From the NCBI GenBank assembly GCA_027023475.1, contig JALVVJ010000054.1, positions 1-51,861 on the forward strand: a stretch of 51,861 bases of DNA, read 5' to 3'. Source of the stretch: Flavobacteriales bacterium. Its GTDB lineage: Bacteria; Bacteroidota; Bacteroidia; Flavobacteriales; Flavobacteriaceae. The position numbers and the translations under genes are program-made. The notes under the pieces were generated by a model. It was given only the letters and a program-made list of their open reading frames with translations. It did not search any database and was not told the DNA's origin. This document shows, in pieces, positions 2,736 to 46,296 of the stretch. How positions within the stretch are numbered: the stretch's first letter is position 1; every line of letters starts with the position of its first letter.

Positions 2736-2828
2736 GCGTGGAAATTTGTAACGAAAATACGGCAAAATGCGGGGATATAAAAATGGAAAGTAAAGTAGCA
2801 TTTATGATAGCCATTTGAAAATAATTTA

Positions 2829-2982
2829 ACCACAGAGTCGCACGGAGTACGGCACAGAGTTTCACGGAGTTTTTTATACTATTTTTGATTTGCTAATGTA
2901 ATCATTGAAGGACATCCCCGCTTTGTAACCCTGTGAAATTTTACATAAAATACCCTCTGTGTTACGCTGTGTCCTCTGTGGT
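2829..2982. repeat. CACAGAG palindromic repeat, copy 1
   Basis: The element begins ACCACAGAGTCGCACGGAG and ends CTCTGTGGT, so its two ends are inverted repeats made of CACAGAG-type words. Its centre carries a linker-like sequence (2892-2911) and the words TTTGTAACCCTGTGAAATT. A second, very similar copy follows after about 17 bp. CACAGAG-rich intergenic repeats of this kind are widespread in bacterial genomes. Confidence 0.88.
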
Positions 2983-2999
2983 TTAATCCCTTTAATCTA

Positions 3000-3160
3000 A
3001 CCACAGAGTTTCACAGAGTACGGCACAGAGTCGCGCAGAGTTTTTATTCCTTTCCGCTACTGTAAACATTGGAGGACATAGACGCTTTGTAACCCTGTGA
3101 AATTTTACATAAAATACCCTCTGTGTTACTCTGTGATAATAACTCTGTGTCCTCTGTGGT
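3000..3160. repeat. CACAGAG palindromic repeat, copy 2 (tandem)
   Basis: The same arrangement as copy 1 is seen here: ACCACAGAG at the left, CTCTGTGGT at the right, and a near-identical centre (CTACTGTAAACATTGGAGG at 3057-3075, then TTTGTAACCCTGTGAAATT). An extra CTCTGTG word makes it slightly longer. Together the two copies fill most of the gap between the DUF4254 gene and the lipoprotein gene. Confidence 0.88.
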
Positions 3161-5994: not shown

Positions 5995-6240
5995 GCGCCA
6001 GGGATGGGAGCGGTTATGCGGCGATGTCGCGCCGCCGGCCTGCCGCAGCAGGGTGGCTGACAGCGGGAAGCCGCACTGCTGCGTATGCAGGCCAAGAGCG
6101 GGACGAGCCGCATTTGAGCGGACAGCACGGCGGCTGCCACGTGAGTGCCGGCAGGCGGGAGGGCGCTCCGTCGTCCCGAAGCGCCTGCCGATGCGGCGGA
6201 GCCGCCACGAACGTGAGCAGCCGGGCGCCCAAAGAAAATA
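5995..6240 (+). repeat. R element copy R2 (short form)
   Basis: It has block 1 (GCGCCAGGGATGGGAGCGG with TTATGCGG, about 5996-6021), a GC-rich variable arm without the 164-bp module, and block 2 (GCATTTGAGCGGACAGCACGG, about 6110-6130). A second arm contains CACGTGAGTG and CACGAACGTG. It ends CCGGGCGCCC then AAAGAAAA. The element lies between iorB and iorA, in opposite orientation to both, with its GGGCGCCC end about 30 nt from the iorA stop. Confidence 0.88.
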
Positions 6241-8569: not shown

Positions 8570-8672
8570 GTTTGGGGTGCTCCGAAACCCGCCTGCGGCG
8601 GTTTTCTCCGCGGCTCCCGACATTGCTACGCAATGTGCGGGACAAGTTACGCGGGCTATACAAGCCGTCAGG

Positions 8673-8711
8673 GCGCCGGCGGCGGAATGAACATTCCGCT
8701 GCCGGCGGCGC
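8673..8711 (+). repeat. GC-rich hairpin shared with 34486-34524 (copy 1)
   Basis: GCGCCGGCGGCGGAAT and ATTCCGCTGCCGGCGGCGC form a hairpin with one bulge around a 4-nt loop. The same sequence, including the flanking ACAAGCCGTC, occurs in the opposite orientation near tyrS. In both places a G element lies next to it. Confidence 0.85.
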
Positions 8712-8779
8712 AAAAAATTAGTTGGCCGCTGCTTTGATGCGGGGTTTGCGGTTGTTTTTACGGCAGGGTCGCAAAAATC

Positions 8780-9044
8780 CGGTGTTTTTTGCGCCGCCGG
8801 CCCCGCGCCTTTGGCGCGGGGCCGGCGCCCCTTGTCTTGCTGCGCGGGCTACGAAGCCACTTGCCGCCTTCGCTACGCTCGGGCGGCTGCGGTCTTCTCC
8901 GCCGGCTCCGGGAACCTGCGGCTTCCAACGGCCAATACCAAGGCCGCGCCTTGTTTCCCTCCGCGGCTTCGGGAGCCGGCACGCTCCGCCTTCGGCTTCG
9001 CATTGGTCTCCCTTCGCTCGCCGTGGAGCCCGGCCTTTATCCTT
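8780..9044 (+). repeat. G element copy G1 (GC-rich modular repeat)
   Basis: It starts with a T run and a strong hairpin (CCCCGCGCC TTT GGCGCGGGG inside GCCGGC flanks, near 8799-8826), then CCCCTTGTCTTGCTGCGCGG. After this come modules alternating GGCTCCGGGAACC, GGCCAATACCAAGGCC and GCTTCGGGAGCC words, ending near CGCATTGGTCTCCCTTCGCT. Several of these blocks recur almost unchanged in G3 (33978-34436, minus). All six frames are nearly open, which produces spurious long proteins. Confidence 0.85.
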
Positions 9045-9109
9045 CAAATTCGGTTCAATTAACTGAAAATCAATTCATAATTCAAAATTCATAATTCAAA
9101 ATTATTCAG

Positions 9110-9288
9110 GCCGGTCTCCCCGGACGTTGCTCGGCAGCCCTACGGTCTGCCTCCGCGGCCCTCGAAGCCCTTCGGTCTCCTCGGGAAGCGGCGAGCCGTC
9201 TGCGCCGTCTCGCCTTGGCGCCGCGAAGCCCTGCCGTCTCGCTTGGACTTACGGCTCGCTCGGCGGCGGTCTCCGCGGACGGAAATTT
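9110..9288 (+). repeat. G element copy G2 (3' part)
   Basis: It contains repeated words of the form AGCCCTnCGGTCTCC and GGCGCCGCGAAGCCCTGCCG, ending CGGTCTCCGCGGAC. Its right end matches the corresponding ends of G3 (CTCCGCGGGC on the minus strand) and G4. It lies between G1 and the linker and I-type repeat at 9297. Confidence 0.75.
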
Positions 9289-9296
9289 TTAATCCA

Positions 9297-9508
9297 CTTC
9301 AATATTTACAATAGGAGAACGATGTCATTCCGACAAAGTTTTGCCGGGCGACAGCAAGTCAAAACGCCAGCTTGTCCTGCACCGAAGGTCGGGAAGGAAT
9401 CTCATTTTGGATTGGACAATAGGAACTTAATATTCCGTCCCGAATGGAGTATCCGTGCCTCACTGCGTTCGTCGAAATAACAGGACTCCTTCAATGTTTA
9501 CAGTAGGA
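9297..9508 (-). repeat. I-type repeat copy I3 flanked by linkers
   Basis: The segment is bounded by two linker copies (CTTCAATATTTACAATAGGA at 9297-9316; CCTTCAATGTTTACAGTAGG at 9488-9507). Just inside the first, GTCATTCCGACAAAGTTTTGCCGG matches the ends of I1 and I2 near 42500 and 43130 in reverse orientation. The middle is diverged. Confidence 0.75.
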
Positions 9509-9559
9509 CGTTAATCATAAACCTGGATGCTTCAACCATGGCCGGATGCACTATTGTGG

Positions 9560-9844
9560 ACGCGCGATTTATCGCGCGCACCTTAATTATCGCGCCAGGG
9601 ATGGGAGCGGTTATGCGGCGCGGGTCGGTGCCGATGGTTTTCCGCCCGGCGGAGGCGACCGAAGGAAGCCCCACGCACGGACGGGCGCGGGCAAGCGTAG
9701 CCGCAGCCCGCGCAAAACCACGGCATCCGCCAAGCCGCATTTGAGCGGACAGCCCGACGGGAGCCACGTGAGTGCGCTGTGGTGCGAACGAAGGTGAAGC
9801 AACACAGCATACACGAACGTGAGCGGCCGGGCGCCCAAAAAAAA
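9560..9844 (+). repeat. R element copy R3 (short form)
   Basis: It has the palindrome CGCGCGATTTATCGCGCGC, block 1 CGCCAGGGATGGGAGCGG with TTATGCGG (about 9592-9618), a GC-rich arm, and block 2 CATTTGAGCGGACAGCCCG (about 9738-9756). It ends CCGGGCGCCC with seven A. The promoter of the PiT transporter gene begins about 23 nt downstream of the A run. Confidence 0.9.
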
Positions 9845-9866
9845 TTATTCGACCCATTTGTCAATG

Positions 9867-17964: not shown

Positions 17965-18051
17965 AACCGCCAAATTTACGGGCTAAATTATCAAAAATAA
18001 TTCAATCGGCAGGTTCGGGATATTCATTTTTGCCGTTTTCTTCTTTAATTT

Positions 18052-19910: not shown

Positions 19911-20012
19911 TTTGGTATTCACCGATGATACGGACTCTACTACAATTTTTTCAGTAGCGGATAAATCGAGAATCCGGTAGCATCAAGCGAGACCACATAC
20001 AACATTGTGGCC
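19911..20012. other. Short intergenic spacer before R4
   Basis: No gene or convincing terminator was seen. An imperfect stem CTACTACAATTTTTTCAGTAG occurs near 19937-19956 but lacks a GC core. Confidence 0.4.
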
Positions 20013-20383
20013 GTGCGATTTGTTGCGCGCCAACCGCGCCAGGGATGGGAGCGGTTATGCGGAGTAGGCATCGCTTCAAGCATGAAATTATCACACCAAG
20101 TTTTGTTCTTTTTGCCGATAACGGCATTGGCAATCCATGCCATAGCTACGGCTATGCCTTCGGACGACCGGCTTTGTTCTCGACAAAAATAACTTCAACT
20201 TTTCCGATACTTTATGCTTGAAGCGATGCCGGCGGCCCGCCGTAGGCCTGCCGTGGCGGCGGGGCGACCAGTGGGAAGCCACGCCCGCCACGCTTGCAGG
20301 GCAAGAGCGGGCCGCTGCCGCATTTAAGCGGACAGCCCGGTCCCGACATCGCGCAAGCGATGTACGGGAGGCGCCCAAAAAAA
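20013..20383 (+). repeat. R element copy R4 (long form)
   Basis: It has the palindrome variant GCGATTTGTTGCGCGC, block 1 CGCGCCAGGGATGGGAGCGG with TTATGCGG (about 20036-20062), the 164-bp arm at 20067-20230, and block 2 CATTTAAGCGGACAGCCCGG (about 20321-20340). It ends GGCGCCC with seven A. A consensus promoter for the next operon begins 16 nt downstream. Confidence 0.9.
20067..20230 (+). repeat. 164-bp arm with terminal inverted repeats (copy 2)
   Basis: It is the same length and nearly the same sequence as 705-868. The left terminal repeat has one change (GCATGAAA for GCATAAAA), so pairing has one mismatch. Internal differences cluster around CATTGGCAATCCATGCC. Confidence 0.9.
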
Positions 20384-25618: not shown

Positions 25619-26587
25619 TTATTTGGCCGTTTTTTTGAAGAACAAGCGTTCCTTGAAGGCCGAAATTTTGGCTTTCAGGTCGTTGAATTTGCCCTCGGTT
25701 TCTTCTTTGTTTTCGATGGCTTTTTTCAGCACGTCGATGGCATCGGCCAGTTCTTTGTATTCTTTGTCACGCTTACCGTAGCCCAAAGCTTCGGCTAGTT
25801 TGAGTTGGTAATCGGCGTTTTCCAGATAGTTTACGGCCGTTTTTCCCTTGTTTTCGTCCTTGCTTTCCATGGCCACGGCAGCGGCTTTGATATATTCCTC
25901 GGCGCGCAGAACAGGCAAAGGAATATGGCTGTCGGTTACCAGCAAGGTGTTCAATGCATTGACCAGCACGGCCGATGCTTCGTCCTTTTTGCCTTGGCTC
26001 ATCAGGTTAACGGCCAATTTGATGGCGTCGGGATAGGTGGCCAAGGGCAGGTAAGTGGTTTTAACCACAATTTCGCTGGCCAAATCGTTCAGGATTTGAC
26101 GGGCCAGTTGGTAATAGCCGTCGTCCATGGCTTTTTGAGCCGATTCAACGGCGGCATACACAGCTGGAATGTCGGCAATCAAATCACGGGTTTCGTAGTT
26201 TACGTCCACCGGAATCAGGGCCAGTTTGGGATCTTTGGCCATCAGCACCTCCAATTGACCCACAATTTTGGCCAGCAAGTCCTCGGCTTCCTTGTTTTTG
26301 GCTTTGGCAATCAAGTCAACGGCCTTTTGGGTTTCGGCCAATATTTCCAAGGCCTGTTTGATGTTAGTCGTGTCGGCTTTTTGTTGTTGTTTGACTTCGC
26401 CTTGAAGGCTTGCCGATACGTTTTCTTGCATTTGCTTGTCGGTCATAGCCGACTTGGCGGGTTTTTTGACGTCTTTGTGAATTTGTTCGGTTTTCATTTT
26501 ATCGGTTGATTTATTGGTTGTTGAATTTTGTTGTTGGCAGCCGGCCAGCAGGGCCAGCGCCAGGATAATACTTACTATTTTCTTCAT
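25619..26587 (-). CDS. YfdX-family lipoprotein
   Basis: This is a 322-residue secreted lipoprotein. The signal peptide MKKIVSIILALALLAGC places the lipobox Cys at residue 17. The mature part is an Asn/Thr/Lys-rich linker, then the YfdX core: helices around IKQALEILAETQKAVDLIAK, KDPKLALIPVDVNYETRDL, ALAT-type strand TTYLPLATYPDAIKLAVNLM and the signature TDSHIPLPVLRAEEYIKAA. YfdX proteins are acid or stress-induced periplasmic proteins of unclear biochemistry. It is a paralogue of the gene 6 nt upstream, with nearly the same layout, and shares its promoter; a terminator follows. Confidence 0.8.
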   Translation of the reverse strand: MKKIVSIILALALLAGCQQQNSTTNKSTDKMKTEQIHKDVKKPAKSAMTDKQMQENVSASLQGEVKQQQKADTTNIKQALEILAETQKAVDLIAKAKNKEAEDLLAKIVGQLEVLMAKDPKLALIPVDVNYETRDLIADIPAVYAAVESAQKAMDDGYYQLARQILNDLASEIVVKTTYLPLATYPDAIKLAVNLMSQGKKDEASAVLVNALNTLLVTDSHIPLPVLRAEEYIKAAAVAMESKDENKGKTAVNYLENADYQLKLAEALGYGKRDKEYKELADAIDVLKKAIENKEETEGKFNDLKAKISAFKERLFFKKTAK

Positions 26588-26593
26588 AGCTAA

Positions 26594-27508
26594 TTATTTT
26601 TTATCGGTTTTGGTAAACAAGCGTTCTTTGAATGCTTTGAGTTTGTCGGACAATTTGTTCATGCTTTTGCGCGTGCTTTTTTCGTGTTCTTTTTCGATAT
26701 GGGCTTTAAGGCCGCGAATCAGGTCGTGCAAATCCTTGTATTCCTTATCTTTTTTGCCATAGCCCATTTTTTCGGCCAAGGTCAGTTGGTAATCCGCAGC
26801 ATTGACCAAGGCAAGCAATACCTCTTTGTTTTCCTTAAATTTTTTGTTGTTATCCAATACCAACAGGGCTTGCTTCACATATTCTTCGGCACGCAAAACG
26901 GGCAAAGGAATCACATCTTCGCGAACCACCAGGGTGCCCAATGCTTGTGCCAAAACGGCGGCTGCTTCGCGGTCTTTTCCCTTGCCCAGCAATCCGGCAG
27001 CCATTTTCATAGCATCGGGATAGGTGGCCATGGGCAGATAGGCCGTTTTGACCACAATTTCGCTCGACAGGTCGTTCAGGGTGCGTTTGGCCACTTGATA
27101 ATAACCTTTGTCGATGGCTTCGCGCACGGCTTTCATAATTACATCCACCGTTTTAGGGTCGGCAACCACGTCGTGCACTTCGGTGGTGGCACTCACCGGA
27201 ATCAAGGCCAAATCGGGATTTTGGGCCAGCAAAACTTCCAATTTACCGATCACTTCGGCCAGTTTCTTTTGGGCCTCGTCTTTTTTCTTTTGGGCCAGGA
27301 GCGAAATGACCTCTTGGGTTTCGTTGAGCACATCGATGGCCTTTTGCGTTTCGGCGGTTTTGGCCGCTTCGATGCCGGCGTTTACGTTCTTTTGAACACG
27401 TTCTTGCATATCACGGTTCGAAATGCCGGTTTTGTTCACCGGTTGATCTTGGGCTTGCGTGACTCCCCACGCAAAAACCATCAGCAGAATAGCGATTAAT
27501 TTTTTCAT
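26594..27508 (-). CDS. YfdX-family periplasmic protein
   Basis: This is a 304-residue secreted protein. The ATG at 27508 gives signal peptide MKKLIAILLMVFAWGVTQAQ, without a lipobox Cys, so it should be soluble in the periplasm while its paralogue downstream is lipid-anchored. Shared core features are ETQKAIDVLNETQEVISLLA, NPDLALIPVSATTEVHDVV, TAYLPMATYPDAMKMAAGLL and REDVIPLPVLRAEEYVKQA. The C-terminus is a Lys-rich helical segment (SDKLKAFKERLFTKTDKK) almost identical in style to the end of its partner. It is transcribed from the consensus promoter at 27555-27587. Confidence 0.8.
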   Translation of the reverse strand: MKKLIAILLMVFAWGVTQAQDQPVNKTGISNRDMQERVQKNVNAGIEAAKTAETQKAIDVLNETQEVISLLAQKKKDEAQKKLAEVIGKLEVLLAQNPDLALIPVSATTEVHDVVADPKTVDVIMKAVREAIDKGYYQVAKRTLNDLSSEIVVKTAYLPMATYPDAMKMAAGLLGKGKDREAAAVLAQALGTLVVREDVIPLPVLRAEEYVKQALLVLDNNKKFKENKEVLLALVNAADYQLTLAEKMGYGKKDKEYKDLHDLIRGLKAHIEKEHEKSTRKSMNKLSDKLKAFKERLFTKTDKK

Positions 27509-27554
27509 TTTCGTTAATTTTTTATTCAACATAAAAATTCATATTCTCTTCCAT

Positions 27555-27587: not shown

Positions 27588-27627
27588 ATGTTATTTTTTT
27601 GTCAGTTAAAAATGCCAAATTGGCTAT

Positions 27628-27864: not shown

Positions 27865-28431
27865 ATGATTCCCGTTGCCACGGTCATTCTTGCCGGCGGA
27901 AAAAGCCGCCGTATGGGCACCGACAAGGCCCTTTTGCCTTGCCGCGGAACCACTTTGCTGGATATTGCCTTGCAAACGGCCGTGCAAACCGGTTTTCCGG
28001 TGTATGTGAGCACCGCACCGGACAGATCCTACGATTTGCCTTCCGGCATCTCTCGTATTCCCGACCGCTATGCCGGCATTGGCCCTTTGGGCGGAATCGC
28101 TTCCTGCCTGGAACAAATCCCTTCCGAAACCCTGATTTTCATTCCCGTGGATATGCCTTTGCTCCAAGCGGAATTATTGAGGAAAATGGTCGAAATGATT
28201 CCGGCATCCGCTTCGGCTTTGGCCGTGCAAACCGGCCGGCGGATTTATCCGCTTCCCTTGGTGCTTCGCCAATCGGCCTTGAATGCGATTAAACGCCAAA
28301 TCGACCGGAACGACTTCCGGCTTTATTCCTTACTTGACCGGATTCCTGCCAAAATCATTGTCCGCCCCGGCTGGGAGCCCTATTTTGCCAACCTAAACAC
28401 CCCCGATGACCGACAAATCTGCAATGAATAA
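27865..28431 (+). CDS. mobA: Molybdenum cofactor guanylyltransferase
   Basis: This is a 188-residue cytoplasmic nucleotidyltransferase that attaches GMP from GTP to Mo-molybdopterin, giving the guanine dinucleotide cofactor. The N-terminal signature LAGGKSRRMGTDKALLP (about residues 9-25) is diagnostic, with DRYAGIGPLGGI (about 67-78) and VDMPLL (about 93-98), whose Asp binds metal. The length is normal. The end overlaps the start of the next gene, a membrane protein fused to an NTPase. No other moa/moe genes or molybdoenzymes are in the window. Confidence 0.92.
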   Translation: MIPVATVILAGGKSRRMGTDKALLPCRGTTLLDIALQTAVQTGFPVYVSTAPDRSYDLPSGISRIPDRYAGIGPLGGIASCLEQIPSETLIFIPVDMPLLQAELLRKMVEMIPASASALAVQTGRRIYPLPLVLRQSALNAIKRQIDRNDFRLYSLLDRIPAKIIVRPGWEPYFANLNTPDDRQICNE

Positions 28432-30073
28432 GGACACCCGCCTGTTGTGGACGCGCGCGGCGGCCATCGGAAGCATCTGGGCGGCCTTCGAAATTATTTT
28501 GGGCACTTTCCTTCACGCACTCCGCTTGCCCTTTGCCGGCACCACACTTACGTTTTTTTCGGTGGCCTTGCTTACGGCCTTTGCGCGCCGCTATCCCCAA
28601 AAAGGGCTTTTTTGGCGCGCCGCCTTGGTTACGGCCTTGTTACGTTCCTTGATGCCAAGCACCTTTATTCTGGGCCCGTTGGTGGGTATTTTGCTCGAAG
28701 GATTGATTTTCGAATGGTTTACCCGGCTTTTGGGCTACCGATTTACGGCCTTTGCCTTGGCGGGTGTTTTGGCAATGTTCAGTGCCATTTTGCACAAACT
28801 GGTCAGTATTTTGCTCATTTACGGAACCGATATTTGGCTGATACTCAAAAACCTTTATTTCGCCCTTATGCGTTCCACCGGCTGGCATTTGTCGCCCACG
28901 GCATTGTTTGCGGCCATTGGCGCGGTGTATGTGCTGGCCGGCATTTCGGCGGCCTACACAGGCCTGTATTTGGCGCGAAGCGCTTGGCAAACGAAAGTTC
29001 CGGTTGATACGATGCCCCGGATTTCGTCCCGTGGAACGGATATTTTTTCGGTCTCGGCTCGCTTTCGTTATCATCGCACATTTATCATCCTCCATTTGGC
29101 TGCTTTGATTTTCTTTTTGACGGGCTTGGAGTTATTTCCGTTTTCCTATATGTGGCCTGCCGTTGTGTTGTATGAAATATTCCTGATTTACCGCTACGGA
29201 AAAGGACTGCGAAAACTCAACAAAGCCTTTTTTTGGGTTCAATTGCTGCTGATAGCCCTGCTCGCCCTTTGGCTTTGGTCCGACAAAAAGGAAGGTTTGC
29301 AAATCGGGCTCAAAATGATGCTCCGTGCCGTTTTGTTGGTTTCCATCCTCACGGCCGTTGGCACCGAATTGCGCAATCCCATCGTCCGGCACTTGCTCGA
29401 ACGTCGCGGCTATGCGCCTTTGCTTTCCGCTCTGCAATCGGCCACAGGCACTTTACCGTCCGTTTTGGCCTATATGGGCCGGCAAAAATCCGGTTGGGTA
29501 AAACCCTTGGCCGTGCTGCGCCGAAGTTTGCAACTTATCGATGCGGTGATCCAAAACATCAACAAAGCGCATAACCAACGAGACATTTTCTACATCACCG
29601 GCCCTTCGGGTAGCGGAAAGACATCGCGTTTGAAGCAAATATATCAAGCATTGCAAGCCGAATATCACCCGCAAAAAATAACCGGCTTTTTGGCCTTGGC
29701 CCGTTATGAAAACGGCCAAATCACCGGTTACGAACTTCATTGCACCGGCGGGCAGGTGTTTCCTTTGGCTTCACGCAACCAACCTTTTGACCATAACCTC
29801 CGGGTGGGACGATTCAACCTGAATGCTACGGTTTTCGAAAATTGCACAGCGATGCTCCTGACCGCCTTGGAACAAGCCACCTGGCTTTTGATCGACGAAA
29901 TGGGCCCCTTGGAATGTGAGGGCAAGGGGTGGATGCCGCTTTTCGAAACGGCTTGTCAAATGCCGCAATTACAAATCCTTATTACCGCCCGCCCCAAAAC
30001 CCTGGATTGCTTGCGCGAACGCTTCCCGGAATACCGCTTCCGTGAATGGACGGAAAATGTGCTTGATGGATGA
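28406..30073 (+). CDS. Membrane protein fused to THEP1-like NTPase (ECF S/T-like regions)
   Basis: This is a 555-residue protein overlapping mobA; translation may begin at ATG 28406 or 28424. Residues 15-190 have about five helices with AFEIILGTFLHALRLPFAG and STFILGPLVGILLEGLIFE, which recall S components of ECF vitamin/metal transporters. Residues 225-355 have about four more helices with EGLQIGLKMMLRAVLLVS, recalling the T component. Residues 393-555 form an NTPase of THEP1 type: P-loop GPSGSGKT (399-406), GFLALARYENGQITGYEL, VGRFNLN, and IDEMGPLE (496-503). There is no ABC signature motif. Position suggests a role in molybdenum uptake or cofactor supply, but that is inference. Confidence 0.72.
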   Translation: MTDKSAMNKDTRLLWTRAAAIGSIWAAFEIILGTFLHALRLPFAGTTLTFFSVALLTAFARRYPQKGLFWRAALVTALLRSLMPSTFILGPLVGILLEGLIFEWFTRLLGYRFTAFALAGVLAMFSAILHKLVSILLIYGTDIWLILKNLYFALMRSTGWHLSPTALFAAIGAVYVLAGISAAYTGLYLARSAWQTKVPVDTMPRISSRGTDIFSVSARFRYHRTFIILHLAALIFFLTGLELFPFSYMWPAVVLYEIFLIYRYGKGLRKLNKAFFWVQLLLIALLALWLWSDKKEGLQIGLKMMLRAVLLVSILTAVGTELRNPIVRHLLERRGYAPLLSALQSATGTLPSVLAYMGRQKSGWVKPLAVLRRSLQLIDAVIQNINKAHNQRDIFYITGPSGSGKTSRLKQIYQALQAEYHPQKITGFLALARYENGQITGYELHCTGGQVFPLASRNQPFDHNLRVGRFNLNATVFENCTAMLLTALEQATWLLIDEMGPLECEGKGWMPLFETACQMPQLQILITARPKTLDCLRERFPEYRFREWTENVLDG

Positions 30074-33490: not shown

Positions 33491-33900
33491 TTTTCGGGCG
33501 CCTCCCCGCACAAGTTCACGCAAGCTGCGCTGCTGCGCATCGCAGCGCGTTCACTTGGCGGGGCCGGGCTGTCCGCTCAAATGCGGAGGCGGCCCGCTCT
33601 TGCCCTGCAAACGTGGCGGACGTGGCTCCCCACTGGTCGCCCCGCCGCCACGGCAGGCCTACGGCGCGCCGGCATCGCTTCAAGCATAAAGTATTGGAAA
33701 AGTTGAAGTTATTTTTGTCGAGAACAAAGCCGGCCATCCGAAGGCATAGCCGTAGCTATGGCAAGGATGGTCAATGCCGTTATCGGCAAAAAGAACAAAA
33801 CTTGGTGTGATAATTTTATGCTTGAAGCGATGCCACCTCCGCATAACCGCTTCCATCCCTGGCGCGATAATAAGGTGCGCGCGATAAATCGCGCGTCCAC
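33491..33900 (-). repeat. R element copy R5 (long form)
   Basis: On the minus strand it runs from GCGCGATTTATCGCGCGC near 33895 through block 1 CGCGCCAGGGATGGAAGCGG, the 164-bp arm (33671-33834), block 2 CATTTGAGCGGACAGCCCGG and an arm with AGTGAACGCG. It ends GGGGAGGCGCCCGAAAA at 33491. It is upstream of the NlpC/P60 gene in the same orientation. Confidence 0.9.
33671..33834 (-). repeat. 164-bp arm with terminal inverted repeats (copy 3)
   Basis: It is nearly identical to 705-868, with perfect 20-bp terminal inverted repeats and the same flanks within the R element (GCGGAGGT on one side, GGCGCGCCGTAGGCC on the other). Confidence 0.9.
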
Positions 33901-33977
33901 ATTGAAGCATCCCGCCTTGAATGAAACATCGGGGTTTATGATTATTCCTCTACTGAAAATATTGTAGCGGAACAAAA

Positions 33978-34436
33978 ATAACGCCCGCGGAGCCCGCGGC
34001 CGAGCGAGGCGAAAGTCCGAGCGAGGCGGCAGGGCTCCGCGGCGCCAAGGCGAGACGCCGTAGGCGGCTCGCCGGCAAAGAGCCGGGACGGCCGTGGCCG
34101 GCCCGGCGACAAGCAAGGAAACGCGTAGCGGTTCCGCAGCAAGCGAAGGGAGACCAACGCGAAGCCGCAGGCGGAGCGTGCCGGCTCCCGAAGCCGCGGA
34201 GGGAAACAAGGCGCGGCCTTGGTATTGGCCTGTTGAAGCCGCAGGTTCCCGGAGCCGCCGAGGAAACCGAAGGGTTCCGAGGCCTGCAAGGAGACCGACA
34301 GGGCTCCGCAGCACGCGGAGCGAAACGCCGTCAGGCGGTTCGCGCAGCCGCGCAGCAAGACAAGGGGCGCCGGCCCCGCGCCTTCGGCGCGGGGCCGGGC
34401 GGCGCAAAAATCGAAGGGATTTTTCCTAGTCAAGGC
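33978..34436 (-). repeat. G element copy G3
   Basis: On the minus strand it starts near 34436 with TTTTTGCGCCGCCCGGCC and the hairpin CCCCGCGCCGAAGGCGCGGGG, then CCCCTTGTCTTGCTGCGCGG. Next come modules such as GGCTCCGGGAACCTGCGGC and GCTTCGGGAGCCGGCACGC shared with G1, ending GGGCTCCGCGGGC. This is the longest copy. It occupies the region upstream of tyrS, and its T-run end points towards that gene. Confidence 0.88.
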
Positions 34437-34485
34437 GTTGAATAAACGATAAATCCCGCATCCAAACATTTGCCGCTGATATTTT

Positions 34486-34524
34486 GCGCCGCCGGCAGCG
34501 GAATTTTCATTCCGCCGCCGGCGC
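34486..34524 (-). repeat. GC-rich hairpin shared with 8673-8711 (copy 2)
   Basis: On the minus strand it reads GCGCCGGCGGCGGAAT, GAAA, ATTCCGCTGCCGGCGGCGC, one base different from copy 1 in the loop. The flank ACAAGCCGTC is shared. Confidence 0.85.
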
Positions 34525-34583
34525 CCCGACGGCTTGTGGAGCGCCAATAAAATCAACAAGCATCGTGCCTGCGGAATATTCCG

Positions 34584-40784: not shown

Positions 40785-42046
40785 CCGCGCATTTGCCTTT
40801 GCCCGAACGTTTGCGTCCGCAAACGCTCGACCGCGTGGTGGGCCAGGAACATCTCACCGGCCCGGATTCGGTCTTGCGACGGATGCTCGAAGGCGGCGAA
40901 CTGTTTTCGATGCTTTTTTGGGGGCCGCCCGGCACGGGCAAAACCACCCTGGCGCAAATTATTGCCAAGCAATCCGGCCGGCCTTTTTACGCCCTTAGCG
41001 GCGCCCGTTCGGGCGTGAAGGAAATCAAGGAAATAGTGAACAAGTATGAAAAAAATCCCCTGTTTGCCCGCCAACCGCTGATTTTCCTGGACGAAATTCA
41101 TCGTTTTAATAAAACCCAACAGGACGCCCTGCTCGAAGGCATCGAAAAGGGGCAATTCGTGCTCATCGGCGCCACCACCGAAAATCCGGGCTTTGAAATC
41201 AACAACGCCTTGCTGTCGCGTATGCACACCTTTGTGCTCAAACCGGTGGACGACGAGGGCCTGCGCACACTGCTTCGCCGTGCATTGGAAGAAGACGATG
41301 TGCTTCGCAGCAAAAATATTCAAAACATCGACGAGGATTTTCTGATTGCCTACGCCGGTGGCGACGCCCGCCGTTTGCTCAATGCCCTGGAATTGGTGGT
41401 GCTTACGGCCGGAACGCCCGAACTCACAGCGGAGCAAATGGCCGGAATACTACGCAACCAACCGGCCTACGACAAAAAGGGCGATTGGCATTACGAGGTC
41501 ATTTCGGCTTTTATCAAATCCATTCGCGGCAGCGACCCCGATGCGGCGGTTTATTGGCTGGCCCGGATGATCGAGGCCGGCGAAAAGCCCGAGTTTATTG
41601 CCCGCCGCCTGGTGATTTCGGCCGCCGAAGACATCGGTTTGGCCAATCCCAACGCTCTGTTGATGGCCAATGCCGCCTTCGATGCCGTGATGCGCATCGG
41701 TTGGCCCGAGGCGCGGATAATCCTGTCGGAAGCTACGATTTACTTGGCCGCATCGCCCAAAAGCAATTCGGCCTACAAGGCCATCAACGAAGCCCAAGCG
41801 CAAGTGCGCAAAACGGGAAACCTGCCCGTGCCCCTTCATCTGCGCAATGCTTCGTCGGCTTTTGCACGCAAATTGGGCTACGGCAAGGGCTACAAATATC
41901 CGCACGATTTCCCCGGGCACTTTACCCCGCAAAATTACTTGCCCGGGGGCTTGGAAAACATCCGGTTTTACAAGCCCGCCGACAATCCCGCAGAACGCAA
42001 ACTGGACGAGTATTTGCGTCGCACTTCCCGGAAAAACGAGTCATAA
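40781..42046 (+). CDS. rarA: Replication-associated recombination protein A (AAA+ ATPase)
   Basis: This is a 421-residue AAA+ ATPase (MgsA/RarA) related to clamp loaders, acting at stalled replication forks. It has Walker A GPPGTGKT (about 48-55), Walker B FLDEIHRFN (about 102-110), sensor I IGATTENPGFEIN and arginine-finger region LLSRMHTF. The C-terminal tetramerisation part includes GSDPDAAVYWLARMIEAGE and ASPKSNSAYKAINEA. Length and start are normal. It is translated with rpe. The T run of repeat R6 begins just after its stop. Confidence 0.96.
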   Translation: MTAHLPLPERLRPQTLDRVVGQEHLTGPDSVLRRMLEGGELFSMLFWGPPGTGKTTLAQIIAKQSGRPFYALSGARSGVKEIKEIVNKYEKNPLFARQPLIFLDEIHRFNKTQQDALLEGIEKGQFVLIGATTENPGFEINNALLSRMHTFVLKPVDDEGLRTLLRRALEEDDVLRSKNIQNIDEDFLIAYAGGDARRLLNALELVVLTAGTPELTAEQMAGILRNQPAYDKKGDWHYEVISAFIKSIRGSDPDAAVYWLARMIEAGEKPEFIARRLVISAAEDIGLANPNALLMANAAFDAVMRIGWPEARIILSEATIYLAASPKSNSAYKAINEAQAQVRKTGNLPVPLHLRNASSAFARKLGYGKGYKYPHDFPGHFTPQNYLPGGLENIRFYKPADNPAERKLDEYLRRTSRKNES

Positions 42047-42047
42047 T

Positions 42048-42298
42048 TTTTTTGGGCGCCCGGCCGCACACGTTCACGTAAGCCGCCGGCCTTCGCCTTC
42101 GGCTTGTCCGGCAGCACGTTCACGTGGCGCCCGCCGGGCTGTCCGCTCAAATGCGGCTTGGGTGCGTTGGTTTTTGCTATGCCGTCGCCGTGGTCTCTTG
42201 CGCTGCGAGCCCCCCGCCGCCGGCGCAAAAACACATCCGCCCCTGCGCCGCATAACCGCTTCCATCCCTGGCGCTTGGGGCGCGCGATAAATCGCGCT
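42048..42298 (-). repeat. R element copy R6 (short form)
   Basis: On the minus strand it runs from GCGCGATTTATCGCGCGC near 42298 through block 1 GCGCCAGGGATGGAAGCGG with TTATGCGG, a GC arm, block 2 CATTTGAGCGGACAGCCCGG, an arm with CACGTGAACGTG, and ends CCGGGCGCCC with seven A. The end lies directly after the stop of convergent rarA, as with R1. Confidence 0.9.
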
Positions 42299-42346
42299 TG
42301 AATATCGAACACCGAACAGATGATTAACGATTTGTGATTTGCGTTC

Positions 42347-42540
42347 TCCTACTGCAAACATTGAAGCAAGGTGTCATTTCGATGGAGCGCCCGAAGGGCG
42401 CGACTGAGAAATCTCGACACGGGCAATTCATACAAGGTGGAATTCTACGTTCCTATTGTTCAATTCGTGAAGAGATTCCTCGTCGTTTTGCCTTGCTGAC
42501 GCCGGCAAAACTCCGTCGGAATGACACCCTTCTGCTAGTG
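42347..42540 (+). repeat. I-type repeat copy I1 with linker
   Basis: It begins with linker TCCTACTGCAAACATTGAAG, then GTGTCATTTCGATGGAGCG, hairpin GCGCCCGAAGGGCGC and GACTGAGAAATCTCGACAC. It ends GCCGGCAAAACTCCGTCGG and AATGACA. It is followed at once by H1. Confidence 0.85.
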
Positions 42541-42634
42541 TAAATATTGAAGGCGAAAACCGCATTGCGGGAATGATAAAGGAAGGCAAACCGGAGCGCC
42601 TGGATTCCCGCTTTCGCGGGAATGACAAATGGGG
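42535..42634 (+). repeat. H-type repeat copy H1 with linker
   Basis: Linker CTAGTGTAAATATTGAAGG is followed by CAAACCGGAGCGCCTGG and the hairpin ATTCCCGCTTTCGCGGGAAT with GACAAAT. The hairpin word is common in bacterial intergenic repeats. Confidence 0.85.
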
Positions 42635-42639
42635 CCAAC

Positions 42640-42960
42640 CCGGGGGAAACGCGTTCCGTTGATGTTACGCTCGCCCTTTGGGTATTGATGGAAAAAATCC
42701 AAGATTCGCGAAGCGAATAACAAAATCTTTTTCACCAAAATAGGCGGGCAAAATTTGGAAACCCAGGGCGAAGCCCGCCAAATTTTGACCGCGGTTTTCG
42801 GGGCGTCATAAATTTCACTCCTATGACGCCCCGAAAAATTTATTGAAAAAGCGTCTTTTTCTTTGGTTCTTTCTTTTGGACGAGCAAAAGAAAGAACAAG
42901 GAAAACAAAAAAGATTAAAAGCCGCCCTCGAATAATGAATACCGAGCAATTGAACATTGA
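42640..42960. other. Repeat-like spacer with two hairpins
   Basis: No gene is supported. It holds the perfect inverted repeat GGGGCGTCATA / TATGACGCCCC (42800-42832) and an imperfect inverted repeat based on TTCTTTCTTTTG / CAAAAGAAAGAA (about 42868-42903). Both look like intergenic repeat modules. Confidence 0.6.
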
Positions 42961-42976
42961 TTTTCAATTTTGTTTC

Positions 42977-43166
42977 TCCTATTGCAAACATTGAAGCATA
43001 GCGTCTTTTCGATGAGCGCCCGAAGGGCGCGACTGAGAAATCTCGACACGGATGCTTCATCCGGGACCGAATGTTACGTTCCTATTGTCCAATCCGTGAA
43101 GAGATTTCTCGTCGTTTTGCCTTGCTGACGCCGGCAAAACTTCGTCGGAATGTCATCGTTCTCCTA
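42977..43166 (+). repeat. I-type repeat copy I2 with linker
   Basis: It has the same order as I1: linker TCCTATTGCAAACATTGAAG, GCGCCCGAAGGGCGC, GACTGAGAAATCTCGACAC and GCCGGCAAAACTTCGTCGG. It is followed at once by H2, so the I-H pair is a duplicated composite. Confidence 0.86.
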
Positions 43167-43258
43167 TTGTAAACATTGAAGGCAAAACCGTATTGCGGAA
43201 ATAACAAAGGAAGACAAACCGGAGCCCCCGGATTTCCGCTTTCGCGGGAATGACAAAT
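43162..43258 (+). repeat. H-type repeat copy H2 with linker
   Basis: Linker TCCTATTGTAAACATTGAAG, then CAAACCGGAGCCCCCGG and hairpin TTTCCGCTTTCGCGGGAA with TGACAAAT. It is closely similar to H1 and runs directly into G4. Confidence 0.85.
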
Positions 43259-43600
43259 AGGATGCCCGCGGAGACCGCCGCCGAGCGAGGCGAAAGTCCG
43301 GGCGAGGCGGCAGGGCTCCGAGGGCCGCGAGGAGACGCCGAAGGCGGCTCCGAAGCAAACGGAGCAAGACCGGAGTCAAAGCGAAGCGGCGCCGGAAGGG
43401 CTTGCGGAGTTGCGAAGGGAGACCAACGCGAAGCCGCAGGCAAAGCGTGCCGGCTCCCGGAGCTGCCGAGGAAACCGAAGGGTTCCGAGGCCCGCGAAGC
43501 AAGACAAGGCGTGGCTTTGGTGTTGGGCCAAGGAAGCCGACGGCTTGCGGAGCCCGTAGGGAGACCCACGCAAAGCGTGCGGGCTCCCGGAGGAACAAAA
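43258..43600 (-). repeat. G element copy G4
   Basis: On the minus strand it starts TTTTTTTGTTCCTCCGGGAG near 43600, contains CTTCGCGGGCCTCGGAACC and GGTTTCCTCGGCAGC modules and the CGCGTTGGTCTCCCTTCGC word, and ends GGTCTCCGCGGGC. Its T-run end lies 4 nt from the stop of the DUF6588-like gene. Confidence 0.85.
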
Positions 43601-46067: not shown

Positions 46068-46296
46068 TTGTTTTTTTTGGCGCTCCGGCGCCCTGCGGTC
46101 GCCTCCACGGCTCCGGGAGCCACCTGGCGGCGTCTCCCTTCGCGCGCTCGGAGCCCTGTCGGTCTCCTCGCGGGCCTCGGAACCCTTCGGTTTCCTCGGC
46201 GGCTTCGGAAACCTGCACTTCCCTGAGCCAACGCACGGGCCACGCTTGTTTTCCTCCGCGGCTCCGGCAGCCCTGCGTTCTGCCTCCGCGGATTGG
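46068..46296 (+). repeat. G element copy G5
   Basis: It starts with a run of T and GGCGCTCCGGCGCC, followed by alternating GGCTCCGGGAGCC, GGTCTCCTCGCGGGC, CTCGGAACCCTTCGG and GGTTTCCTCGGCGGC modules. It ends CTGCCTCCGCGGATTGG. The T-run end faces the rpsF promoter. Confidence 0.85.

What the first reader, a model, noticed from the sequence alone, without database searches (positions are those of the whole stretch)
28406..30073. Possible ECF-like transporter using a THEP1-type NTPase, overlapping mobA
One polypeptide appears to join an S-component-like membrane region, a T-component-like membrane region and a THEP1-like NTPase (GPSGSGKT, IDEMGPLE). Known ECF transporters use ABC ATPases; here no ABC signature is present. 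The overlap with mobA suggests a link to molybdenum or molybdopterin. This could be an undescribed membrane NTPase system.
Basis: inference. Interest (0 to 1): 0.72.

Follow-up and report, generated by a model that had tools for sequence, protein, structure and literature searches.

The report
Predicted bacterial importer of molybdenum cofactor
This gene encodes a three-part membrane protein, with an unusual energy-using domain, that probably lets bacteria unable to make molybdenum cofactor take it up ready-made from their surroundings, something for which I found no bacterial transporter described.

Summary
ORF 28406-30073 (+) is a real gene: a six-TM S-like region, a T-like region and a THEP1-type NTPase, overlapping mobA by 26 nt. 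Related genomes carry the same modules fused or as separate genes, often with a TonB-dependent receptor or mobA. The Rfam Moco riboswitch lies upstream of 9 of 9 separate-gene S-T-TonB operons and of several fused ones, but was not found in the window genus. Of 46 system loci in molybdoenzyme-bearing genomes, 20 lie within 10 kb of a molybdoenzyme (about 0.5 expected). Genomes with a strong molybdoenzyme lack MoaC in 29 of 37 with the system and 2 of 53 without. In the window's genus, six carriers have a molybdoenzyme but no MoaC, MoaE, MoeA or ModB match; three non-carriers have no strong one. I infer a salvage importer of molybdopterin/Moco: a TonB receptor feeds S, T and the THEP1 NTPase drive uptake, MobA makes MGD. 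Molybdate import is less likely. Homology of S and T to ECF components is weak by sequence and the structure prediction failed, so ECF membership is unproven; the ABC ATPase that defines ECF transporters is absent. Nine literature searches found no such system. No substrate was tested.

The parts
27865..28431 (+). mobA: molybdenum cofactor guanylyltransferase, first gene of the two-gene unit
   Evidence: Pfam NTP_transf_3 E 1.9e-32; NCBIfam molyb_mobA E 1.1e-26, below its cut-off. A mobA-like ORF lies directly upstream in L002, L004, L005, L006
28406..30073 (+). 555-aa S-T-THEP1 fusion (proposed Moco/molybdopterin importer, inner-membrane part)
   Evidence: ORF; homologues; dN/dS 0.10-0.18
28439..29005 (+). 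S-like membrane region, residues 12-200, six TM-like segments; E29, G33, P42, G45, G140 invariant in 38 sequences
   Evidence: sub-threshold Pfam ABC_cobalt and Trep_Strep in some homologues, none for the window's own S region
29045..29575 (+). T-like membrane region plus helical C-terminal part, residues 214-390; R307 invariant in 25 sequences
   Evidence: sub-threshold CbiQ matches in 5 of 16 and 4 of 25 sequences; hhalign to CbiQ P 0.003
29576..30070 (+). THEP1-type NTPase domain, residues 391-555
   Evidence: Pfam PF03266 E 8e-13 for residues 395-518
29600..29623 (+). Walker A GPSGSGKT
   Evidence: 27 of 27 NTPase domains have a Walker A
29891..29914 (+). Walker B IDEMGPLE
   Evidence: 25 of 27 NTPase domains matched the pattern used

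Best explanation
The protein is the inner-membrane part of a salvage system that imports ready-made molybdopterin or Mo-molybdopterin (Moco). In relatives a TonB-dependent receptor brings the compound across the outer membrane (shown: the gene is in the operon; inferred: its substrate). The S-like region binds it, and the T-like region couples S to the THEP1 domain, which hydrolyses NTP to drive release into the cytoplasm, in the manner of an ECF transporter but without an ABC ATPase (inferred). MobA, encoded next to it, converts the imported cofactor to MGD/bis-MGD for a DMSO-reductase-family enzyme (inferred from the MobA family). In many relatives a Moco riboswitch, mostly followed by a terminator-like hairpin, would shut the operon down when Moco is plentiful (shown: RNA motif and hairpin; inferred: the switching).
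For: Moco riboswitch RF01055 above gathering score upstream of 9 of 9 separate-gene S-T-TonB operons (G253, G162, G089, G261, G186, G390, G394, G426, G515; T of G515), of fused systems in G517, G519, G438, G433, of a contig-cut S gene in G442, and of G502; hairpin plus T run, by eye, in 10 of 12 aligned leaders. 20 of 46 system loci lie within 10 kb of a PF01568 molybdoenzyme, 0.48 expected. mobA within 4 kb in 12 of 37 regions (window's own added by hand), TonB receptors in 13 of 37. Among genomes with a molybdoenzyme of 45 bits or more, MoaC is missing in 29 of 37 with the system and 2 of 53 without, Fisher 4e-14 uncorrected for relatedness; the 29 lie in 13 families (data). In the first 80-genome set MoaE is missing in 26 of 26 versus 0 of 14 and MoeA in 17 of 26 versus 0 of 14. 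Window genus: 6 of 6 carriers have a molybdoenzyme of 53.7-62.3 bits and no MoaC, MoaE, MoeA or ModB match; 3 of 3 non-carriers have nothing above 28.3 bits. G162, one contig and 99% complete, has three molybdoenzymes of 61 bits or more, a Moco riboswitch and no MoaC, MoaE or MoeA match.
Against: 8 of 37 carriers with a strong molybdoenzyme have MoaC and 5 of 37 have MoaE, so the system is not confined to cells lacking the pathway. For the short-T and NTPase-S forms the link is weaker: 8 of 13 lack MoaC, against 21 of 24 for the long forms. In the class replicate MoaE is also missing in 15 of 40 non-carriers with a molybdoenzyme, so it is a weak marker there. 2 of 53 non-carriers lack MoaC and have no such system. 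No riboswitch was found at the window-genus loci and no TonB receptor gene beside those read. The fused forms mostly lack a riboswitch in what was searched (14 genomes without, 4 with). MoaA, MogA, MoaD and MobB were not searched. Most genomes are in many contigs. Free Moco is unstable in air (recalled), so supply is uncertain. S and T homology to ECF parts is weak and the AF2 model failed. No transport was measured.
Confidence: 0.6

Rival explanations
1. It imports molybdate or tungstate (or a chelate of them): an ECF-like replacement for ModABC, driven by THEP1.
For: ModB is over its cut-off in 0 of the 40 genomes taken as carriers. The Moco riboswitch also controls molybdate transporters in known cases (PMC2408646, abstract and passages). 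mobA and molybdoenzyme linkage.
Against: Most carriers with a strong molybdoenzyme lack MoaC, and in the first set all 26 lack MoaE, so molybdate alone would not yield cofactor. Molybdate crosses porins (recalled) and would hardly need the TonB receptor found in 13 of 37 regions. Some genomes of the carrier set have ModB-like hits of 143-155 bits below the cut-off (G057, G073, G085, G370, G430).
Confidence: 0.2
2. It is not a transporter but a membrane-bound maturation device that delivers or inserts cofactor (a MobB-like role for the NTPase) into exported molybdoenzymes.
For: Position beside mobA and molybdoenzymes, some with an apparent TAT signal (by eye). MobB is also a P-loop NTPase (recalled), and one NTPase homologue shows a sub-threshold MobB match, E 0.11.
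Against: Does not explain the TonB receptors in the same operons or the missing MoaC, MoaE and MoeA.
Confidence: 0.1
3. Mo-linked uptake of a pterin precursor (cyclic pyranopterin phosphate, or metal-free molybdopterin) that the cell finishes itself.
For: G045, G089 and G390 have MoeA but no MoaC, which fits import of metal-free molybdopterin there.
Against: The window genus shows no MoaE and no MoeA, so a precursor would be useless there unless unknown enzymes act.
Confidence: 0.1

Closest known systems
ECF transporters (S component + EcfT/CbiQ + ABC ATPases EcfA/A'; features recalled)
   Same: Small six-TM S-like protein, a second membrane protein placed like a T component, a cytoplasmic P-loop NTPase; probable cofactor substrate; riboswitch control in relatives
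   Different: NTPase is THEP1-type, no ABC signature; all parts may be one chain; partnered with a TonB receptor in relatives; S and T only weakly related by sequence
THEP1/NTPase_1 proteins (COG1618; Aquifex aq_1292 structure, human HCR-NTPase)
   Same: Pfam NTPase_1 over threshold with conserved Walker A and B
   Different: aaTHEP1 is described as a single-domain ATPase/GTPase of unknown role in vivo (PMC1079890, passages read); here the domain is joined to, or encoded beside, membrane parts
BtuB-BtuCDF vitamin B12 uptake (recalled)
   Same: TonB receptor plus energised inner-membrane importer for a large scarce cofactor, riboswitch control
   Different: Inner-membrane part shows no ABC-transporter homology; no periplasmic binding protein was looked for
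ModABC molybdate transporter
   Same: Serves molybdoenzymes; can be under a Moco riboswitch (PMC2408646, passages)
   Different: This protein has no significant match to ModABC families; carriers often lack the pathway that would use molybdate
C. elegans dietary Moco acquisition
   Same: Use of ready-made Moco from outside
   Different: Animal; mechanism unknown (PMC9793310, passages read)

Membership tests
THEP1 / NTPase_1 (PF03266) | Pfam match over gathering score | tested here: met
   49 bits versus 23.9
THEP1 / NTPase_1 (PF03266) | Walker A and Walker B followed by Glu | tested here: met
   Window protein has both; 27 of 27 and 25 of 27 domains, the window's included
ECF transporter | ABC-type ATPase with signature motif | tested here: not met
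   No ABC signature; Pfam ABC_tran only 15.6 bits at the P-loop, cut-off 25
ECF transporter | S component family match | tested here: inconclusive
   No hit for the window itself; in 38 S sequences the two most frequent Pfam hits are ABC_cobalt (5, best 1.1e-4) and Trep_Strep (5, best 1.9e-4); those scored one by one are below gathering. That both are ECF S families is recalled
ECF transporter | T component (CbiQ/EcfT) family match | tested here: inconclusive
   No hit for the window itself; CbiQ is the commonest weak hit, 4 of 25 (best 0.034); hhalign P 0.003, S-region control 0.11
ECF transporter | S/T three-dimensional fold | tested here: inconclusive
   AF2 on two near-identical sequences: pLDDT 38, unusable; no fold search was run
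ModABC | ModB over cut-off in the carrier genome | tested here: not met
   0 of 40
Moco riboswitch regulon | RF01055 upstream | tested here: inconclusive
   Met for 15 carrier genomes; not found for the window or its genus
Moco/molybdopterin importer | Transport of the substrate | not testable with these tools
   Needs an experiment

The most novel reading that the evidence does not exclude
A new class of primary importer: ECF-like membrane parts energised by a THEP1 NTPase instead of ABC ATPases, working with a TonB receptor and a Moco riboswitch to take up intact molybdenum cofactor, so that bacteria of many families run molybdoenzymes without making the cofactor.
Probability: 0.5. Interest if true: 0.95.

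Novelty: new variant of a known kind. Interest (0 to 1): 0.85.

Why it matters
Moco is usually treated as a cofactor that each bacterium makes for itself (recalled); a dedicated importer would make it a shared, vitamin-like good and add a kind of auxotrophy that genome annotation would miss. It would give a role to some THEP1-type NTPases, whose in vivo function was stated as unknown in 2005 (PMC1079890, passages), and would show that ECF-like transport can run on a non-ABC NTPase. It bears on the open question of how Moco crosses membranes, raised for C. elegans (PMC9793310, passages).

Tried and rejected
Viral contigs gave no further homologues (one search errored because the alignment was too diverse). 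Plasmid searches found none. PDB sequences: best match of the whole protein was the human THEP1 at E 0.021, weak hits after it; nothing for S; only irrelevant hits for T. Rfam scan of the window at E up to 5 gave two implausible matches. Considered and rejected as the main reading: a simple molybdate transporter (does not explain missing MoaC, MoaE and MoeA); MoaE as a clean marker (fails in the class replicate). The short-T and NTPase-S forms may not be the same system in full.

Treated by hand: the molybdoenzyme threshold of 45 bits leaves out weaker hits; other thresholds are and keep the direction. Five of the 40 genomes taken as carriers in the first set (G214, G347, G359, G370, G422) matched only by the NTPase part; none has a molybdoenzyme of 45 bits, so the 26 and 37 do not contain them. 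Presence lists were copied by hand. One search covers 59 system loci that I listed, not every match, with a 38-bit limit. Operon forms and the count of 13 families were assigned by hand. The 37 regions were chosen by me from matches. There the ORF caller missed the window's mobA (added, 11 to 12) and the T gene of G515 (found); its molybdoenzyme column (7 of 37) used too strict a profile, and I used coordinates instead. Gene names in operons other than Pfam-tested ones were given by eye.

Full report
The thing itself. ORF 28406-30073 (+) is 555 aa and starts 26 nt before the end of mobA. Residues 395-518 match Pfam NTPase_1 (THEP1) over its gathering score; at E up to 1 no Pfam match lies before residue 366. 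Walker A and B are present and no ABC signature was found. Hydropathy gives six TM-like segments, a gap, then three more before the NTPase. Codon comparison with two homologues shows purifying selection, dN/dS 0.10 and 0.18.

Relatives. In 40 related genomes 8 had a match, 6 of the 9 genomes of the window's genus among them (the G021 match is weak and has stops). In G002 the membrane part and the NTPase are separate overlapping ORFs behind mobA. In 395 genomes of the phylum, 34 matched at E 1e-10 or better, some by the NTPase alone; in 159 genomes of the class of G162, 37 matched the S profile at E 1e-5 or better. Reading 20 and then 18 regions showed several forms: S-T-NTPase fused (as in the window); separate S (about 200 aa), T (about 182 aa), TonB-dependent receptor (about 640 aa; the one tested, L042, is over Pfam thresholds) and THEP1 NTPase; a two-gene form with a short T plus an NTPase; and an NTPase-S fusion. 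S profiles of the long and short forms match strongly (hhalign E 1.6e-23); the short T matches the long T moderately (2.2e-6).

Are S and T the ECF parts? The evidence is weak. Among 38 S sequences the two commonest Pfam hits are ABC_cobalt and Trep_Strep (5 each, best E 1.1e-4 and 1.9e-4); that these are ECF S families is recalled. CbiQ is the commonest weak hit of the T set (4 of 25, best 0.034). hhalign of T against 19 CbiQ sequences gives P 0.003, and the S profile, as a control, 0.11. The window's own S and T give none of these hits. The window's genome has no CbiQ match. In my reading it works like an ECF transporter, but an ABC ATPase, a defining part, is absent, so I do not file it as a member.

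Link to molybdenum. mobA lies within 4 kb of the system in 12 of 37 regions and TonB receptors in 13 of 37 (window's mobA added by hand). In genomes with a PF01568 molybdoenzyme of 38 bits or more, 20 of 46 listed system loci lie within 10 kb of one, with 0.48 expected from genome size. The window's own molybdoenzyme is on another contig (C51), in a cluster that by eye holds a 4Fe-4S protein, a NrfD-like protein, two YeeE/YedE-like proteins and a rhodanese, so its distance cannot be told. A 2.55-kb stretch holding mobA and the fusion is shared at 96% identity with G008, whose flanks in L002 do not match the window.

Moco riboswitch. RF01055 lies above its gathering score upstream of all nine separate-gene S-T-TonB operons, of the fused systems of G517, G519, G438 and G433, of a contig-cut S gene in G442, and of G502, a two-gene form with a TonB receptor. 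By eye, 10 of 12 aligned leaders then carry a hairpin with a T run before the gene, as in an attenuator. Searched and negative: the fused or split systems of G000, G002, G003, G004, G006, G008, G025, G131, G052, G514, G434, G447, G454 and G460 (some with little upstream DNA), ten further two-gene forms and one NTPase-S fusion (these read over about 1.5 kb of flank only).

Who lacks the Moco pathway. In 80 genomes (40 taken as carriers, 40 without a match) I searched ModB, MoaC, MoeA, MoaE and PF01568. ModB is over cut-off in 0 of 40 carriers. Among genomes with a molybdoenzyme of 45 bits or more, carriers lack MoaC in 20 of 26, MoaE in 26 of 26 and MoeA in 17 of 26; non-carriers lack each in 0 of 14. 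A replicate in 159 genomes of one class gave MoaC missing in 17 of 24 carriers and 2 of 40 non-carriers, but MoaE missing in 19 of 24 and 15 of 40. The two sets share genomes; the union is 29 of 37 against 2 of 53 for MoaC and 32 of 37 against 15 of 53 for MoaE. Split by form, MoaC is missing in 21 of 24 long-form carriers and 8 of 13 short-T or NTPase-S carriers. The p-values ignore relatedness, but the 29 belong to 13 families. In the window's genus all nine genomes have no MoaC, MoaE, MoeA or ModB match; the six with the system have a molybdoenzyme of 53.7-62.3 bits and the three without have nothing above 28.3 bits. G162, a one-contig genome, has three strong molybdoenzymes, the riboswitch and no match to MoaC, MoaE or MoeA.

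Reading. Cells that run molybdoenzymes, sense Moco by riboswitch and lack the known route to it must obtain it elsewhere. The system is often riboswitch-controlled, sits with TonB receptors, mobA or molybdoenzymes, and has the build of an energised cofactor importer. I therefore take it to import Moco or molybdopterin, with MobA finishing the cofactor. Against: 8 of 37 carriers have MoaC and 5 of 37 MoaE; the window genus shows neither riboswitch nor a neighbouring TonB receptor; MoaA, MogA, MoaD and MobB were not searched; nothing was measured.

Literature. Nine searches of the held library listed no paper whose title or abstract start names a THEP1-driven ECF-like transporter or a bacterial Moco importer. 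[quoted passage not shown] elegans (2022); PMC12282271 (one passage) suggests that some T11SS outer-membrane proteins may act in cobalamin or molybdopterin uptake; PMC2408646 (abstract, passages) describes the riboswitch; PMC3766115, PMC5317091, PMC13390414, PMC7759655 and PMC1079890 were seen in passages only. Most subscription papers and bioRxiv preprints are not held.

Noticed in passing
window 25619-27532 (-): Two tandem genes of the YfdX family (Pfam E 3e-32 and 8e-33), one with a lipoprotein signal match, divergent from mobA; 69% DNA identity over 385 bases.
   Followed up: no
window about 630-1080, 2822-3135, 6028-6238, 8600-9850, 19940-20348, 33550-34540, 42040-43565, 46108-46290; also L150 2800-3420 and 11100-11660: A dispersed, mosaic family of repeats (copies about 65-95% alike), also on another contig of the same genome; a 65-base piece recurs at 18050 and at 27627, shortly before mobA.
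   Followed up: partly
L049 12162-12491, L050 10727-11050, L158 8858-9172 and others: A small CMD-family gene (PF02627, E 1.4e-17 for L158) lies within 4 kb of the system in 9 of 37 regions; role unknown.
   Followed up: partly
L047 4762-5352; also G162:C1:129848, G089:C22:122905, G186:C15:20671: Additional separate S-like genes about 10 kb from the S-T-TonB operon in several genomes, perhaps with another substrate.
   Followed up: no
L050, L053, L162 (two-gene form): Short-T plus NTPase genes lie near molybdoenzyme clusters with an FeS protein, and in L050 a rhodanese by eye, resembling the window organism's own cluster on C51.
   Followed up: partly
G073, G085, G100, G112, G186, G225, G370, G430: Genomes with MoaC but no MoaE match; non-carriers in the class also show this, so an unrecognised molybdopterin synthase or a partial pathway may exist.
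   Followed up: no
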